From an uncultured Cetobacterium sp. (lineage in GTDB: Bacteria; Fusobacteriota; Fusobacteriia; Fusobacteriales; Fusobacteriaceae), in contig NZ_CAMTIK010000018.1 of the NCBI RefSeq assembly GCF_947072685.1, forward strand, positions 1 to 42,243: a stretch of DNA of 42,243 bases. The letters run 5' to 3'. The position numbers and the translations under genes are program-made. Numbering within the stretch: the first letter of the stretch is position 1; the number at the start of each line of letters is the position of its first letter. Positions 1-15,900 of this stretch are shown here, in pieces. The notes under the pieces were generated by a model, which saw nothing but the letters and a program-made list of their open reading frames with translations, did not search any database and was not told the origin of the DNA.

Positions 1-56
1 GCTCCAAAAGCTGTCATAGCCATAGTTAAAGATAAAAGTGTAATTAATTTTTTCAT
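1..56 (-). CDS. Exported protein, N-terminal fragment (cut by window edge)
   Basis: Only the first 18-19 codons are in the window. They read MKKLITLLSLTMAMTAFGA, a Sec signal peptide: two lysines, a hydrophobic core and a TAFGA-like end. An AGGAGG Shine-Dalgarno site lies a few bases upstream of the ATG at 54-56. The mature protein is outside the window, so function is unknown; it must be secreted to the periplasm, outer membrane or surface. The gene is read from a strong promoter through a cyclic-di-GMP-class riboswitch and terminator (102-215), so expression is predicted to respond to a cyclic dinucleotide. Confidence 0.75.
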   Translation of the reverse strand, partial: MKKLITLLSLTMAMTAFG

Positions 57-101
57 TATTTTTTTCCTCCTCCAATTTTAAAAGAACTTTATAAGTATAA
101 A

Positions 102-151
102 TAAAAAAGCCAGTTGCAACTACTCTTCAAAGAGTAGATATGCAACTGGCT
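102..151 (-). terminator. Riboswitch-controlled intrinsic terminator
   Basis: On the minus strand an 11-bp perfect stem (141-151 with 108-118) encloses a second 7-bp stem (131-137 with 120-126), followed by a run of T (107-102). It lies between the promoter and the start codon of the exported protein gene. Its 5' arm is the 3' end of the riboswitch aptamer, so terminator and folded aptamer should exclude each other. Confidence 0.85.
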
Positions 152-215
152 GTCATTTTAAAGACCCTGTAGTTTTGCGTCATAGAGTTTCCTCTACTTT
201 GCCAAAGTTTAATTT
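141..215 (-). promoter_or_regulatory. Cyclic-di-GMP-I (GEMM-class) riboswitch aptamer
   Basis: Reading the minus strand, the hallmarks of the GEMM-I aptamer appear in order. They are GGCAAAG, a 5-bp hairpin with a GAAA tetraloop (TAGAG-GAAA-CTCTA), then TGACGCAAAACTACAGGGTCT, then an ending of the AGCCAGTTGC type seen in clostridial members. Known family members bind c-di-GMP; a related subset binds 3',3'-cGAMP, and I did not settle which applies. The 3' end overlaps the terminator stem, so ligand binding would most simply prevent termination (an ON switch). That direction is inference. Confidence 0.82.
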
Positions 216-223
216 ATACAGTT

Positions 224-252
224 ATAATATATTAAAAAATAAAAAATGTCAA
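224..252 (-). promoter_or_regulatory. Promoter of the riboswitch-controlled gene
   Basis: On the minus strand TTGACA (252-247) and TATTAT (229-224) are separated by exactly 17 bases, a near-consensus housekeeping promoter. Transcription would start near 217, just ahead of the aptamer. The rest of the gap to recG (253-410) is AT-rich and holds only the recG promoter region. Confidence 0.75.
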
Positions 253-5166: not shown

Positions 5167-5520
5167 ATGTTAAGTGGAATCAGCAAAAAAGCAGCGGACT
5201 TAGATTTTGCAATACAAAGCTTAAAAGAGGAGTTACAAGCGGTGGATGACTATAATCAAAGAGCTGAGATGGCGGTTGACCCTGAGCTCAAAGAGATTAT
5301 GCTACACAATAGAAATGAGGAGATGGAACATGCGGCGATGATAGTTGAATGGATTCGTAGAAATCAATTGGAATTTGGTGGGGAGATTGAGGATTATCTT
5401 TTCACTCAAGGGAAAATAATAGGCGTGGAAGCTCAGCTGATGGGAAGAGTTTCTGGCGGAGAGGATAAACCGACCGAAAAAGCTTCAAGTTTGTCGTTGA
5501 ATATAGGTTCTTTAAAATAG
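5167..5520 (+). CDS. Encapsulated ferritin-like cargo protein (EncFtn)
   Basis: EncFtn proteins are half-ferritins that form an annular decamer with a ferroxidase centre at dimer interfaces, and are loaded into an encapsulin shell to mineralise iron. This 117-residue protein has the two-helix core with E22, Y29, and the HNRNEEMEHAAM motif giving E51, E52, E54 and H55, which line up with the metal ligands of the Rhodospirillum rubrum protein from memory. The tail after residue 88 is a flexible linker ending in SLSLNIGSLK, a typical encapsulin-targeting peptide. The usual Trp of the EAVDWY motif is Asp here (AVDDY, residue 28). The shell gene starts 23 bases downstream, which strongly supports the role. 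Confidence 0.93.
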   Translation: MLSGISKKAADLDFAIQSLKEELQAVDDYNQRAEMAVDPELKEIMLHNRNEEMEHAAMIVEWIRRNQLEFGGEIEDYLFTQGKIIGVEAQLMGRVSGGEDKPTEKASSLSLNIGSLK

Positions 5521-5543
5521 AGAGATATTTAGGAGGTATAGAG

Positions 5544-6329
5544 ATGGATTTTTTAAAAAAGGAGCTAGCTCCAATAAGTGCAAAAGTTTGGGAAGAGATA
5601 GAAGAAAGAGCAAAAGAGGTCTTAGGAACACAACTTTCAGCTAGAAGGTTTGTTAGAGTAACAGGACCTATTGGAAAGGAAAAAGGAGGAGTGAATTCGG
5701 GAAGATTATCCATTCAAACTGAGGATGGAATATCTTATGGAATCCATCAAATTCAACCTTTTGTAGAAAATAGAATAACATTTAAATTGAATAGATGGGA
5801 ACTGGATAACATTGAAAGGGGAGCAAAAGATATTGATTATACAAATTTGGACGAAGCTTTAAAGAAGGCTGCTAAATTTGAGGAGAAAGCTGTTTTTTCT
5901 GGACTTGACAAAGCCTGTATAGTTGGTCTTTTAAAAGGTGAAAAAGAAAGATTGGAGTTTGGAAAAACGGAAGCAGAAACTATAAAAAACTTGATGTATG
6001 GGGTATCGAAATTAAGAAATACAGGATTTAGTAAAGGACCTTATGCTCTGGTTGTAGGACTTGAGAAATTTATTTATTTAAATATGATAAATTTAAATGA
6101 TTCTTTAGCAAAAAGATTGGAAAAGATATTGGGTATGCCAATAATAGTATCAAATACCATAACAGAAGCTATTATGTTACCGTTTGACAATGAAAATATT
6201 GAGTTGATTTTAGGCGAGGATTTCTCTTTAGGTTATCAAGGTCATGACAATAAAGAGGTTGAATTATTTGTGACTGAAACATTTACATTTAGAATTCTAG
6301 ACAACACAAGAGTAATAGCGTATAAATAA
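5544..6329 (+). CDS. Encapsulin shell protein (family 1, HK97 fold)
   Basis: Encapsulins are HK97-like proteins that self-assemble into icosahedral compartments (usually 60-mers for this size) around cargo bearing a C-terminal targeting tag. The 261-residue length and N-terminus (FLKKELAPISAKVWEEIEERA, then TQLSARRFVRVTGPIG) fit the linocin M18/encapsulin family. A later P-domain/A-domain region includes GPYALVVGLEKF, and the C-terminus has ELFVTETFTFRIL. An AGGAGG site precedes the ATG. It is cotranscribed with the EncFtn cargo gene and ends at a strong hairpin terminator. Predicted role is iron storage and oxidative protection in the cytoplasm. The older label 'bacteriocin' for this family is not supported. 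Confidence 0.94.
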   Translation: MDFLKKELAPISAKVWEEIEERAKEVLGTQLSARRFVRVTGPIGKEKGGVNSGRLSIQTEDGISYGIHQIQPFVENRITFKLNRWELDNIERGAKDIDYTNLDEALKKAAKFEEKAVFSGLDKACIVGLLKGEKERLEFGKTEAETIKNLMYGVSKLRNTGFSKGPYALVVGLEKFIYLNMINLNDSLAKRLEKILGMPIIVSNTITEAIMLPFDNENIELILGEDFSLGYQGHDNKEVELFVTETFTFRILDNTRVIAYK

Positions 6330-6367
6330 AAAAATGGCTAACCTCATTGAAGGTTAGCCGTTTTTTT
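6329..6367. terminator. Bidirectional terminator after the encapsulin gene
   Basis: GGCTAACCT (6336-6344) pairs with AGGTTAGCC (6351-6359), flanked by an A-run on the left and a T-run on the right, so it works for both converging genes. The T-run overlaps the stop codon of the minus-strand gene. Confidence 0.88.
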
Positions 6368-7064
6368 ATATATCAAATTTATAACCTACAGAAAGAGTTA
6401 CTCTTTGGTAGTTGTTATCAATTTTTTCATTGTTAGTTTTTAATTTAGCGTAGTTAACACCATAAAGAACATCTACATTAACGTTTTGATATTCTGCTCC
6501 TAAACCAGCTGCCCAGTAAGCTCCATCATCAATAGATGCAGACCCTTTGTGTATTCCAGAGTTTATATCTTTTTGATCAAAGTTGAAAGAGTATCCAGCA
6601 TTAGCTTTTAAGTATGGTGTAAATGGAAGGTTGAAGTAATCCATGTTGTGTCTAGCAGTTAAATAAACTGGTATAGATTTATATTCTCCACCGTCTGCAC
6701 TACCATCTCTTTTAGCATGACTTTGATAAGCCACTCCTAAACCTAAATCAACATACTGATAAGGTTTGTATGCTTCTGCAGCAATTTCATATCCAAGATC
6801 TTTTGTATTCTTATTTAAGAATTCATGTTTGCTATATCTAGACCAAACATCTCCTCCAACTCTTAAGTTGATGTAGCTAGGTAGTTGTTCAGCGATAACA
6901 GGAGCAGGAGCTTCTGTAACTAAAGTTACTTCCTCGATAACTTCAACAGGTTCAGATATAACCTCTTTTGAGCTTGTGATAACAGGTTGTTGAACAATTT
7001 CTTTAGCTTGTGCTATGCTTCCGATAGAAAGTAATGCACAAGTAAGTAGTGCTAATTTTTTCAT
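6366..7064 (-). CDS. Small outer-membrane beta-barrel-like protein (paralogue A)
   Basis: The 232-residue protein begins with a clear signal peptide cleaved after AQA (residue 20). A low-complexity, Val/Glu/Pro-rich segment (about 21-60) comes next, then alternating hydrophobic/polar strands (YINLRVGGDVW, YVDLGLGVAYQSH, YLTARHNMDYF, YLKANAGYSFNF, WAAGLGAEYQ, VDVLYGVNYA). It ends in RVTLSVGYKFDI, a terminal barrel strand. I infer an 8-10 strand outer-membrane barrel; substrate or role is not visible. It is a close paralogue of the next gene upstream, including near-identical 3' ends. It has its own promoter and structured leader. Confidence 0.8.
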   Translation of the reverse strand: MKKLALLTCALLSIGSIAQAKEIVQQPVITSSKEVISEPVEVIEEVTLVTEAPAPVIAEQLPSYINLRVGGDVWSRYSKHEFLNKNTKDLGYEIAAEAYKPYQYVDLGLGVAYQSHAKRDGSADGGEYKSIPVYLTARHNMDYFNLPFTPYLKANAGYSFNFDQKDINSGIHKGSASIDDGAYWAAGLGAEYQNVNVDVLYGVNYAKLKTNNEKIDNNYQRVTLSVGYKFDI

Positions 7065-7084
7065 TTTAATTCCCTCCTAAAAAT

Positions 7085-7144
7085 GAACATCCTACCGTGT
7101 TGAAAAAGGATGTTGAAACAGTTTGTGGTCTTTTTTCGAACCAC
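7085..7144 (-). promoter_or_regulatory. Structured 5' leader of outer-membrane paralogue A mRNA
   Basis: With transcription starting near 7144, the mRNA would begin directly with a hairpin (7140-7144 with 7125-7129). A second perfect 8-bp hairpin follows (7107-7114 with 7086-7093), just upstream of the AGGAGGG ribosome site. 5'-terminal hairpins stabilise outer-membrane protein mRNAs such as ompA in other bacteria; that parallel is inference. Confidence 0.5.
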
Positions 7145-7150
7145 GAGCGT

Positions 7151-7180
7151 ATAATACAACGGAATACGTAACTAAGTCAA
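7151..7180 (-). promoter_or_regulatory. Promoter of outer-membrane paralogue A
   Basis: On the minus strand TTGACT (7180-7175) and TATTAT (7156-7151) are 18 bases apart. Upstream of it, on either strand, lies a perfect inverted repeat at 7194-7213. Confidence 0.65.
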
Positions 7181-7193
7181 TAAAAGTTTGTTT

Positions 7194-7213
7194 AAACTGT
7201 TTTATAACAGTTT
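7194..7213. repeat. Perfect inverted repeat upstream of the paralogue A promoter
   Basis: AAACTGTT (7194-7201) and AACAGTTT (7206-7213) are perfect arms around TTAT. They sit 14-33 bases upstream of the -35 hexamer. On the plus strand it is followed by T residues and could also be read as a terminator, but no plus-strand gene needs one. A regulator-binding site is an alternative. Confidence 0.45.
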
Positions 7214-7274
7214 TTTTATACAAAAGAAGGAAAAGTAAAAAAAATCAGTACATTCGATAAGATTTTACACAAAT

Positions 7275-7304
7275 AAAAAAGTCGAGAGTTTAAAAACTCT
7301 CGAC
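7275..7304 (-). terminator. Terminator of outer-membrane paralogue B
   Basis: An 11-bp perfect stem (7294-7304 with 7281-7291) is followed on the minus strand by six T residues. It lies downstream of the stop codon at 7327, so the two paralogues are separate transcription units. Confidence 0.85.
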
Positions 7305-7326
7305 AGAATTGAATTTATATTATTTT

Positions 7327-8085
7327 TTATTGGATGTCAAATTTATAACCTACAGAAAGAGTAACTCTCTCGTAGTCGTTATCAAATTTATCCGATCCTC
7401 CTGTTGGGTTATCAACTTTAGTTTTAGCGTAGTTAGCTCCATAAAGAACATCTACGTTGAAGTCTTCATATTGAACACCAAATCCAGCTGCCCAGTATAG
7501 ACCGTCGTCAACTTTAGTTCCATAACTAGTAGATCCAGCATCAACATCTTTTGAATTGAAATTGAAAGAGTATCCAAGGTTAGCTTTTAAATATGGAGTA
7601 GCTGCCCAATCCCAATAGTTTATATTATATCTACCAGTTACATAAATAGGTACAGATTTATATTCAGCACCTGAATAATCTACAGATTCGAAATTACTAG
7701 TTTTTCTTTTCATATGACTTTGATAAGCAACTCCAAGTCCTAAATCCACATAATCCCAATGCTTATAAGCTTCAATTGCTAGTTCTCCACCAAAATCTTT
7801 AGTCTTTTTAGAAAGAGTTGTATCATATGTTTCATGTCTTTTGAAATTTCCATATTCACCCCAGAAATCCCATCCAGCTCTTAGGTTAACATATCCCCAA
7901 GGATTTTCAACAACTGGAGCAACAATAACTTCTTCTACAACTATTGGCTCAACAAGAACCTCTTTAGAACTGACAGGGGCTGCCATAACCTCTTTGGATC
8001 TGCTTACAGGAGTCATAGCCTCTTTGGCTTGTGCTACTGCAGTAAAAGCGAATAAAGAACATGCTAAAAGTGTTAATTTTTTCAT
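7327..8085 (-). CDS. Small outer-membrane beta-barrel-like protein (paralogue B)
   Basis: The 252-residue protein has the same plan as paralogue A. There is a signal peptide to AQA (residue 20), then a repetitive Ser-Lys-Glu-Val segment (SRSKEVM, SSKEVLVEPIVVEEV) that may be periplasmic or surface exposed. After that come barrel-type strands (YVNLRAGWDFW, YVDLGLGVAYQSH, YLKANLGYSFNF, WAAGFGVQYE, VDVLYGANYA) ending in RVTLSVGYKFDIQ. An AGGAGG site precedes the ATG. Identity with A is strongest at the C-terminal half, which points to tandem duplication. No function can be assigned beyond outer-membrane protein. Confidence 0.8.
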   Translation of the reverse strand: MKKLTLLACSLFAFTAVAQAKEAMTPVSRSKEVMAAPVSSKEVLVEPIVVEEVIVAPVVENPWGYVNLRAGWDFWGEYGNFKRHETYDTTLSKKTKDFGGELAIEAYKHWDYVDLGLGVAYQSHMKRKTSNFESVDYSGAEYKSVPIYVTGRYNINYWDWAATPYLKANLGYSFNFNSKDVDAGSTSYGTKVDDGLYWAAGFGVQYEDFNVDVLYGANYAKTKVDNPTGGSDKFDNDYERVTLSVGYKFDIQ

Positions 8086-14111: not shown

Positions 14112-14135
14112 AATATAAGTTTCGAAAAAATAATA

Positions 14136-14313
14136 TTTAGGTAGAGGTTGCAGACAACAAGAGTAATTTAAGTGAGTTAGACAAAACGTTGAACTTGAAT
14201 GAAAGGGTAGTTTGCCGAAACAAGAATTGTGTCAAAAGTTCTTGTTGGGCATATGGAGAATATCTATATGACTGTCATTAGAAAGAGGTTTCTAGTGTTG
14301 TGCTATCCAAAAT
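14136..14313 (+). promoter_or_regulatory. Lysine riboswitch (L-box)
   Basis: The aptamer shows the ordered L-box landmarks: AGGTAGAGGTTGC, then AAGAGTAA, GAAAGGGTAGTTTGCCGAAA, CTTGTTGGGC, ATGACTGTCATTAGA, and the closing GTTGTGCTATCC. P1 can form between 14140-14144 and 14303-14307. The family binds L-lysine and turns genes off. An intrinsic terminator follows directly, so lysine is predicted to stop transcription of the transporter downstream. Confidence 0.93.
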
Positions 14314-14365: not shown

Positions 14366-14415
14366 ACCTAAAATTTCGATGAAGCTAAAAACATAAAAAC
14401 TTGGAGGTTTTAGGA

Positions 14416-15900
14416 ATGAGCAGAATTTCAGAATTATTAAAATTAAGTCCAGTAGCACTGTTGGCAATATTGATGTTTATGGGCTATGATGCGTTGATAG
14501 CAGCCCCTCTTGCAACAATATATGCAGCTTTGGTGGCTGTGATAATTGAAAGAAAAAAAATTAACGATATTATGGATGCAGTTATAAACAACGCCAAAGA
14601 GATGCAGATAGCATTTTTTATTCTTATGGTAGCTTATGCTATGGCAGAGGTATTTATGGCAACGGGTGTGGGAGCATCAATAATAAATTTGGCCTTGAAT
14701 GTAGGGTTGACTGGAAGAACTGTTGCGGTAGTTGGAATAGTTGTGACATCTGTACTTTCAATAGCAACGGGAACTAGCTGGGGAACGTTTGCAGCATGTG
14801 CACCAATATTTTTATGGTTGAATCATATTGTTGGTGGAAATATTGATTTGACAGTTGGAGCAATAGCAGGTGGAGCTTGTTTTGGAGATAATATAGGACT
14901 TATTTCAGATACAACAATAGTGAGTTCTGGAATACAAAAAGTAGAAGTTATAAAAAGAATTAGACATCAAGGGTTCTGGTCACTGTTTGTATTGATTTTA
15001 GGGATTATAGCATTTTATGTGGCTGGTGTGGTAATGGGGTTACCAACTACAACTGGAGATGCAGCAACAGCGATAACACAAATTCCTGAAGGTGTTTGGG
15101 CAGTTTTAGCAGAAAAAAGAGAATCGGCAGTGATTCTTTTAAATCAGGTGAAGGATGGGGTTCCAACTTACATGATAATACCTTTAGTTCTTGTTTTAAT
15201 AGCAGCTTTTAAAGGGATGACAACATTACTTTGTCTATTCATAGGGATATTTTCAGCTTATGGATTGGGATTAATGGCTGGAACAGTGACAGATACAGGT
15301 GAGTTTTTAAATATGGTTATGTCGGGATTTGCAGGTGCAGGATCTTGGGTTATCGTTATGATGATGTGGGTAGCGGCATTTGGCGGTATTATGAAGCTTA
15401 TGGATGCGTTTAGACCTCTATCAAACATAGTTGTAAAAATCTCAAGCAATGTTAGACAGCTTATGTTTTGCAATGGAATGCTATCAATATTAGGAAATGC
15501 GGGGTTAGCAGATGAAATGGCACAAATAGTTACGATAGGACCTATCATAAGAGAGATTGTTGAGAAGAACGTAGAGGGATCACCGGAGGATATAGAGGTG
15601 CTAAGACTTAGAAATGCAACATTTAGTGATGCTTTGGGTGTTTTCGGATCGCAACTTATTCCTTGGCACGTTTATATAGGGTTTTACCTGGGAATTGTTC
15701 AAGCGGTATATCCACTGTATACGTTTAGGGCTATAGATATAATAAAGTATAATTTCTTAGCAATGATAGCTGTTTCAACAATATTGTTAGCTACATTGAC
15801 AGGTTTAGATAGATTTATTCCAAGATTTGGATTGCCGAGTGAACCGAAGGTAAAATTGAAAAAATCTATGAAAAGTACAGTAGTTACAGAGACAGTGTAA
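14416..15900 (+). CDS. NhaC-family transporter, predicted lysine importer
   Basis: The 494-residue protein is almost wholly hydrophobic with about a dozen membrane segments. It carries NhaC-type antiporter motifs: TGTSWGTFAACAPIFLWL, then GGACFGDNIGLISDTTIVSS, and later ADEMAQIVTIGPIIREI. Members of this family downstream of L-boxes were named LysW by comparative genomics as lysine transporters. The riboswitch here makes lysine uptake (probably with Na+ or H+) more likely than simple Na+/H+ exchange. The frame opens at a TTG (14401), but GGAGG lies inside that extension and points to the ATG at 14416. It is a single-gene unit with its own terminator. Confidence 0.88.
   Translation: MSRISELLKLSPVALLAILMFMGYDALIAAPLATIYAALVAVIIERKKINDIMDAVINNAKEMQIAFFILMVAYAMAEVFMATGVGASIINLALNVGLTGRTVAVVGIVVTSVLSIATGTSWGTFAACAPIFLWLNHIVGGNIDLTVGAIAGGACFGDNIGLISDTTIVSSGIQKVEVIKRIRHQGFWSLFVLILGIIAFYVAGVVMGLPTTTGDAATAITQIPEGVWAVLAEKRESAVILLNQVKDGVPTYMIIPLVLVLIAAFKGMTTLLCLFIGIFSAYGLGLMAGTVTDTGEFLNMVMSGFAGAGSWVIVMMMWVAAFGGIMKLMDAFRPLSNIVVKISSNVRQLMFCNGMLSILGNAGLADEMAQIVTIGPIIREIVEKNVEGSPEDIEVLRLRNATFSDALGVFGSQLIPWHVYIGFYLGIVQAVYPLYTFRAIDIIKYNFLAMIAVSTILLATLTGLDRFIPRFGLPSEPKVKLKKSMKSTVVTETV

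What the first reader, a model, noticed from the sequence alone, without database searches (positions are those of the whole stretch)
102..252. c-di-GMP-class riboswitch with overlapping terminator controls an exported protein
Promoter, GEMM-I aptamer landmarks (GAAA-capped hairpin, GACGCAAA, GGGTCT, AGCCAGTTGC) and an 11-bp terminator are in one 150-base unit, and the aptamer 3' end is the terminator 5' arm. This predicts an ON switch for a secreted protein in a lineage where c-di-GMP control is little described.
Basis: partly seen in the sequence, partly recalled or inferred. Interest (0 to 1): 0.65.

Follow-up and report, generated by a model that had tools for sequence, protein, structure and literature searches.

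The report
c-di-GMP switch controlling pilin genes
This is a genuine c-di-GMP-sensing RNA switch in a Cetobacterium, very probably one that turns on genes for pilus-like surface fibres when the "settle down" signal c-di-GMP is high, and it is one of a genus-wide set of such switches that sit in front of nearly every gene of this fibre family.

Summary
Rfam finds a c-di-GMP-I (GEMM-I) aptamer on the minus strand at 213-138 (56.9 bits, cut-off 35). A TTGACA-17-TATTAT promoter lies upstream. An 11-bp terminator (151-108) takes its 5' arm from the aptamer's 3' end, including the ligand-pairing C. Aptamer and terminator exclude each other, so an ON switch is the best reading. Ligand binding itself is untested.

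The genus is Cetobacterium. The gene is cut by the contig end (only 18 codons remain). Seven sister genomes and the facing contig of the same genome identify it as the first of a tandem array of secreted DUF4402 proteins. The predicted fold of a sister-genome relative resembles chaperone-usher pilins.

The genus holds 58 GEMM-I aptamers. In 52 a terminator overlaps the aptamer, with compensatory changes in the shared arm. All 26 DUF4402 genes detected in the genus follow a GEMM-I (one interrupted by an assembly gap). Other targets include chaperone/usher-like operons, an HD-GYP phosphodiesterase operon, EAL proteins and MarR regulators.

The RNA is a new member of a known kind, with the Geobacter pilM-type ON architecture. 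What seems new is a Fusobacteriota c-di-GMP riboswitch regulon for a non-canonical pilus system.

The parts
224..252 (-). sigma-70-type promoter: TTGACA (252-247), 17-nt spacer, TATTAT (229-224)
   Evidence: Scan, 11 of 12 consensus matches; a like promoter precedes most pilin-linked GEMM-I copies; 10 or more of 12 matches in 66% of 58 copies against 7% of shuffles
138..213 (-). c-di-GMP-I (GEMM-I) aptamer; G203, A176 and C142 are the equivalents of Vc2 G20, A47 and C92
   Evidence: Rfam RF01051, 56.9 bits, E 1.2e-8; residue equivalences by alignment and from knowledge of the Vc2 structure
108..151 (-). intrinsic terminator hairpin; 5' arm 151-141 is the aptamer 3' strand, 3' arm 118-108
   Evidence: -27 kcal/mol; aptamer-overlapping terminators in 52 of 58 aptamers of the genus
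103..107 (-). U tract of the terminator (run of six T from 108 to 103, counting the last stem base)
   Evidence: sequence
66..73 (-). Shine-Dalgarno-like GGAGGAGG, outside the terminator
   Evidence: sequence
1..56 (-). first 18 codons of the controlled gene (MKKLITLLSLTMAMTAFG...), a signal peptide; cut by the contig end at base 1
   Evidence: Window is the entire contig C18; 18 of 18 residues identical to the G006 orthologue, a DUF4402 protein

Best explanation
A transcriptional c-di-GMP-I riboswitch of the ON type controls a small array of chaperone-usher-type pilin genes in a Cetobacterium. Shown by sequence: the predicted transcript starts near 217 and makes the aptamer first; the terminator's 5' arm (151-141) is the same RNA that closes the aptamer's second hairpin and carries the C that pairs with the ligand, so both structures cannot form together. 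Inferred: with c-di-GMP bound early, the aptamer holds that strand, the terminator cannot form, and polymerase reads into the pilin genes; without ligand the 11-bp hairpin wins and transcription stops at 108-103. Inferred from the regulon: a rise in c-di-GMP coordinately switches on pilin subunits, assembly operons and an HD-GYP enzyme that would degrade c-di-GMP, giving induction with built-in negative feedback.
For: Rfam hit. Mutually exclusive folds; length-by-length folding switches to the terminator only when position 108 is reached. 52 of 58 genus aptamers have a terminator overlapping the aptamer 3' end, and 50 of those 52 include the C92-equivalent; strict rule 48 of 58 observed against 8.7% in shuffles. 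Compensatory changes in the shared arm: T-A to C-G at arm position 7 and G-C to A-T at position 9. The pilM riboswitch, tested in vitro, works this way: its terminator sequesters C75, the ligand-pairing residue (PMC9262584). The genome encodes three GGDEF proteins, two of them with EAL domains. Gene identity: orthologous loci, DUF4402, pilin-like fold, array continued on contig C10. 25 of 26 DUF4402 genes in the genus lie within 6 kb downstream of a GEMM-I, and the 26th follows a GEMM-I split by a run of N.
Against: No ligand-binding or termination data. The terminator (-27 kcal/mol) is more stable than the unliganded aptamer, so the ON state depends on timing and pausing that cannot be computed here. 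Direction cannot simply be carried over between species: the functional class I switches of C. difficile are all OFF (PMC6366702). The pilin gene itself is missing from the window's assembly between codon 18 and its last codons. The pilin model has middling confidence (pLDDT 72, four sequences), and no classical usher (PF00577) was found.
Confidence: 0.82

Rival explanations
1. Same ON architecture, but the natural ligand is 3',3'-cGAMP (GEMM-Ib type) rather than c-di-GMP.
For: GEMM-I and cGAMP aptamers are nearly alike, and cGAMP switches were first annotated as c-di-GMP ones; the closest architectural parallel, pilM, senses cGAMP. Three of 58 genus aptamers carry A at the position-20 equivalent.
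Against: This aptamer has G there (G203), as do 52 of 58. All three GGDEF proteins of the genome keep the Asp of GHxxGD; cGAMP-making Hypr enzymes are known for a Ser there (own knowledge).
Confidence: 0.06
2. OFF switch: c-di-GMP raises termination or blocks translation, as with the class I riboswitches of C. difficile.
For: The functional class I switches of C. difficile are all OFF (PMC6366702).
Against: An OFF design such as Cd1 lets the terminator coexist with the aptamer and uses a separate antiterminator. Here the terminator consumes the aptamer's own 3' strand, no third strand is evident, and the Shine-Dalgarno sequence lies outside any predicted structure.
Confidence: 0.07
3. A decayed or non-switching copy: an aptamer-like leader with a strong terminator that is always off or is regulated otherwise.
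For: Only 11 of the 16 c-di-GMP riboswitches of C. difficile 630 function (PMC6366702). The terminator is very stable.
Against: Core residues, promoter and gene link are conserved at this locus in seven other species, and the shared arm shows compensatory change.
Confidence: 0.05

Closest known systems
c-di-GMP-I riboswitch, Rfam RF01051 (GEMM-I; Vc2 and Bc2 are studied members)
   Same: full-length covariance match above the cut-off, GAAA tetraloop, GACGCAAA, G at the position-20 equivalent, C at the 92 equivalent; Bc2 of Bacillus thuringiensis is also a read-through ON switch for an adhesin (PMC6366702)
   Different: short second hairpin (2 residues where the model has 13); controls DUF4402 pilin-like genes in Fusobacteriota
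pilM riboswitch of Geobacter metallireducens (cGAMP, ON; PMC9262584)
   Same: aptamer and terminator mutually exclusive; the terminator captures the ligand-pairing C
   Different: ligand and position-20 base differ; controls a type IV pilus gene rather than chaperone-usher-like pilins
Archaic, alternative and classical chaperone-usher pili (Csu of Acinetobacter, CupE, type 1)
   Same: predicted fold of the controlled protein's relative (FimF, CsuA/B, CsuE, CupE among the matches); operon with a PapD_N chaperone; weak SCPU matches
   Different: no PF00577 usher in four genomes; the usher-like 864-aa protein has no clear family; subunits belong to PF14352

Membership tests
c-di-GMP-I riboswitch (Rfam RF01051) | covariance-model score above the gathering cut-off | tested here: met
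   56.9 bits against 35, positions 1-87 of 87
c-di-GMP-I riboswitch (Rfam RF01051) | G at the position-20 equivalent (c-di-GMP preference) with conserved A47 and C92 equivalents | tested here: met
   G203, A176, C142 read from the sequence and the alignment; G in 52 of 58 genus copies
c-di-GMP-I riboswitch (Rfam RF01051) | binds c-di-GMP | not testable with these tools
   needs in-line probing or ITC
ON-type transcriptional riboswitch | terminator and ligand-binding fold share a strand and exclude each other | tested here: met
   terminator 5' arm 151-141 lies inside aptamer 213-138; 52 of 58 in the genus
ON-type transcriptional riboswitch | ligand increases read-through | not testable with these tools
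   needs an in vitro termination assay
cGAMP riboswitch (GEMM-Ib) | A at the position-20 equivalent | tested here: not met
   G203
DUF4402 (PF14352) | Pfam match of the controlled protein above its cut-off | tested here: inconclusive
   the window's own gene is cut after 18 codons; its closest orthologue scores 37.8 bits against 25.2
Chaperone-usher pilus system | pilin (immunoglobulin-like, lacking one strand) fold of the subunit | tested here: inconclusive
   best matches are mostly chaperone-usher pilins, Foldseek E 8.8e-4, Z 8.0; model pLDDT 72; Z near 8 may reflect a common fold
Chaperone-usher pilus system | PapD-like periplasmic chaperone | tested here: met
   PF00345, 30.1 bits against 23, in the C5 operon under another GEMM-I of the same genome
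Chaperone-usher pilus system | usher of family PF00577 | tested here: not met
   0 of 4 genomes; the 864-aa protein in the operon is only inferred to act as an usher

The most novel reading that the evidence does not exclude
Cetobacterium runs a c-di-GMP regulon through riboswitches: one ON-switch architecture, reused 2 to 8 times per genome, puts a whole non-canonical chaperone-usher fibre system (DUF4402 and other subunits, chaperones, usher-like protein) plus an HD-GYP phosphodiesterase feedback under direct RNA control. Related regulons would occur elsewhere in Fusobacteriaceae.
Probability: 0.6. Interest if true: 0.6.

Novelty: new member of a known kind. Interest (0 to 1): 0.45.

Why it matters
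It gives the uncharacterised family DUF4402 a testable function (a surface-fibre subunit switched on by c-di-GMP) and gives Cetobacterium, an animal-gut genus, a concrete route from signal to surface attachment. [quoted passage not shown]

Tried and rejected
The simple terminator scan found nothing because the inner stem exceeds its loop limit; the hairpin is clear on folding. Classical usher search PF00577: none in four genomes. PDB sequence searches with the usher-like, pilin and second-type chaperone proteins gave nothing useful; only CsuC appeared, weakly, for the PapD_N chaperone. The first Rfam scan of related loci exceeded the size limit and was rerun smaller. I tested whether the contig break came from an exact repeat shared with the facing contig end; no shared 14-mer was found. 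No paper held mentions DUF4402. Literature on Fusobacteriota c-di-GMP riboswitches or on riboswitch-controlled chaperone-usher pili was not found, within an open-access library only.

Full report
WHAT IS THERE. On the minus strand, from 252 down to 54, the window holds a complete 5' leader: a promoter (TTGACA 252-247, 17 nt, TATTAT 229-224), an aptamer (213-138), a terminator (151-108 with a T run to 103), a Shine-Dalgarno sequence (73-66) and a start codon at 56. Rfam's c-di-GMP-I model matches the aptamer over its full length with 56.9 bits against a cut-off of 35 (E 1.2e-8). The folded leader is 6 SD more stable than shuffled versions.

THE GENE. Base 1 of the window is the end of contig C18 of a 51-contig assembly, so only 18 codons of the controlled gene remain: MKKLITLLSLTMAMTAFG, which reads as a signal peptide. 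A homologous leader, divergent from recG, is found in seven genomes of the same genus. There it precedes one to three tandem genes for secreted proteins of 139-179 aa, followed by a permease and/or yebC, convergent in most. The nearest orthologue (genome G006) shares all 18 residues and matches Pfam DUF4402 above cut-off (37.8 bits). In the window's own genome the array resumes at the right end of contig C10: the last codons of one such gene (AQVRYN, stop), a second DUF4402-like gene of 158 aa (sub-threshold Pfam match), the permease and YebC. The window's gene is therefore very probably the first of a two-gene array whose first member is mostly lost in the assembly gap.

ORGANISM. The closest named relatives of the window's RecG are Cetobacterium MAGs (82-84% identity); the contigs behind L063 and L064 have the same lengths as contigs of G008 and G009, which share the window's genus. 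The window is thus from Cetobacterium; the species is not established.

WHAT THE PROTEIN IS. A model of the L064 pilin from a four-sequence alignment (pLDDT 72) was compared with the PDB. The best Foldseek match is the FimF pilin (E 8.8e-4) and most of the top 30 are chaperone-usher pilins. VIA-align gives Z 8.0 for FimF, 7.9 for CsuE, 7.6 for CsuA/B, and lower values for CupE and CfaB. Z near 8 can arise from a shared sandwich fold, so this is support, not proof. Independent support: another GEMM-I in the same genome (C5:109270-109345) heads an operon with an HD-GYP protein, a solute-binding protein, a 275-aa DUF4402 protein, an 864-aa protein, a MORN-repeat protein and a PapD_N chaperone (PF00345, 30.1 bits against 23). 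The 864-aa protein is inferred to be the usher from its place and size; PF00577 finds no usher in this genome.

HOW IT WORKS. The terminator 5' arm AGCCAGUUGCA is the 3' strand of the aptamer's second hairpin and contains C142, the equivalent of the C that pairs with the ligand. Folding growing transcripts shows an aptamer-like fold until about position 112 and the terminator from 108. Across the genus, 58 aptamers were examined. In 52 a terminator overlaps the aptamer, and in 50 of these it covers the C92-equivalent. Under a strict ungapped rule 48 of 58 qualify, against 8.7% when downstream DNA is shuffled. In the 14 copies with the same full overlap as the window, both sides of the arm change together (T-A to C-G; G-C to A-T), although the 5' side is also aptamer. 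This matches the experimentally studied pilM ON switch, in which the terminator sequesters the ligand-pairing C75 and the two folds are mutually exclusive (PMC9262584). Bc2 of B. thuringiensis is a class I read-through ON switch for an adhesin, whereas the functional C. difficile class I switches are OFF (PMC6366702). The ON direction here is thus inferred from anatomy plus precedent; it has not been measured.

LIGAND. The position-20 equivalent is G (as in 52 of 58 copies), the c-di-GMP-type base; a G20A variant has been crystallised with cGAMP (PMC6274999). The genome has three GGDEF proteins, two with EAL domains, all with GHxxGD rather than the Ser that marks cGAMP-making enzymes (the Ser rule is own knowledge). 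c-di-GMP is the likely ligand.

THE REGULON. Grouping first genes of the 58 aptamers with Pfam scans gives: DUF4402 pilins 17 (with the window); HD-GYP operons 9; operons of a chaperone-like protein, a subunit, a second chaperone-like protein and an usher-like protein 9; MarR-type regulators 9; EAL proteins with a weak GGDEF match 4; a 75-106-aa secreted protein 4; HTH regulators 2; and four single cases (a lectin, a PAS protein, a large surface protein, one mixed). 'Chaperone-like' for the second operon type rests on gene order and sequence look only; Pfam gave no match. All 26 DUF4402 genes detected in Cetobacterium follow a GEMM-I: 25 within 6 kb on the same strand and one behind an aptamer interrupted by an assembly gap. 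In other Fusobacteriaceae the link is partial (23 of 42). GEMM-I occurs in 9 of 29 genera sampled in the phylum, all in the window's own family and in none of the genomes of family f4.

NOVELTY AND VERDICT. The RNA is an ordinary member of a known riboswitch class with a known ON architecture. The target system and its genus-wide reuse appear undescribed in the papers I could search. F. nucleatum was reported to lack c-di-GMP domains (PMC5478684), so c-di-GMP biology in this phylum is thinly covered. I score the finding 0.45: solid, testable and useful, not a new kind of element.

Noticed in passing
window 14134-14313 (+): Lysine riboswitch (RF00168, 114.5 bits) 88 bases upstream of a 499-aa probable membrane transporter (14401-15900).
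   Followed up: no
window 5167-6329 (+): Encapsulin nanocompartment pair: EncFtn-like ferritin (PF22277) followed by an encapsulin shell protein (PF04454).
   Followed up: partly
window 6366-8085 (-): Two tandem, similar secreted proteins (232 and 252 aa) with similar signal peptides, probably outer-membrane paralogues.
   Followed up: no
L084:596-2713; L085, L092, L125 and others: GEMM-I ON-type leaders in front of an HD-GYP c-di-GMP phosphodiesterase fused to solute-binding domains in nine genomes: predicted negative feedback.
   Followed up: partly
L085 (G006:C4:213232), L110 (G007:C3:123236), L113 (G002:C10:222); L109, L111, L112: Six aptamers carry A (three) or C (three) instead of G at the position-20 equivalent; the A forms might sense cGAMP too, the C forms are unexplained.
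   Followed up: no
L114, L115, L117 (20700 copy), L119: Four GEMM-I copies before a 75-106-aa secreted protein have no clear overlapping terminator; instead the aptamer 5' flank (TTAAAATAAAG) can pair with CTTTATTTTAA downstream. Possibly a different switching mode.
   Followed up: no
L087:4225-4663 and eight homologues: GEMM-I aptamers precede small MarR-family regulators in nine Cetobacterium genomes; the regulator's targets are unknown.
   Followed up: no
G071:C3:967476-967719 and G075:C1:553405-553646: Pairs of GEMM-I aptamers about 90 bases apart, suggesting tandem riboswitches in another Fusobacteriaceae genus.
   Followed up: no
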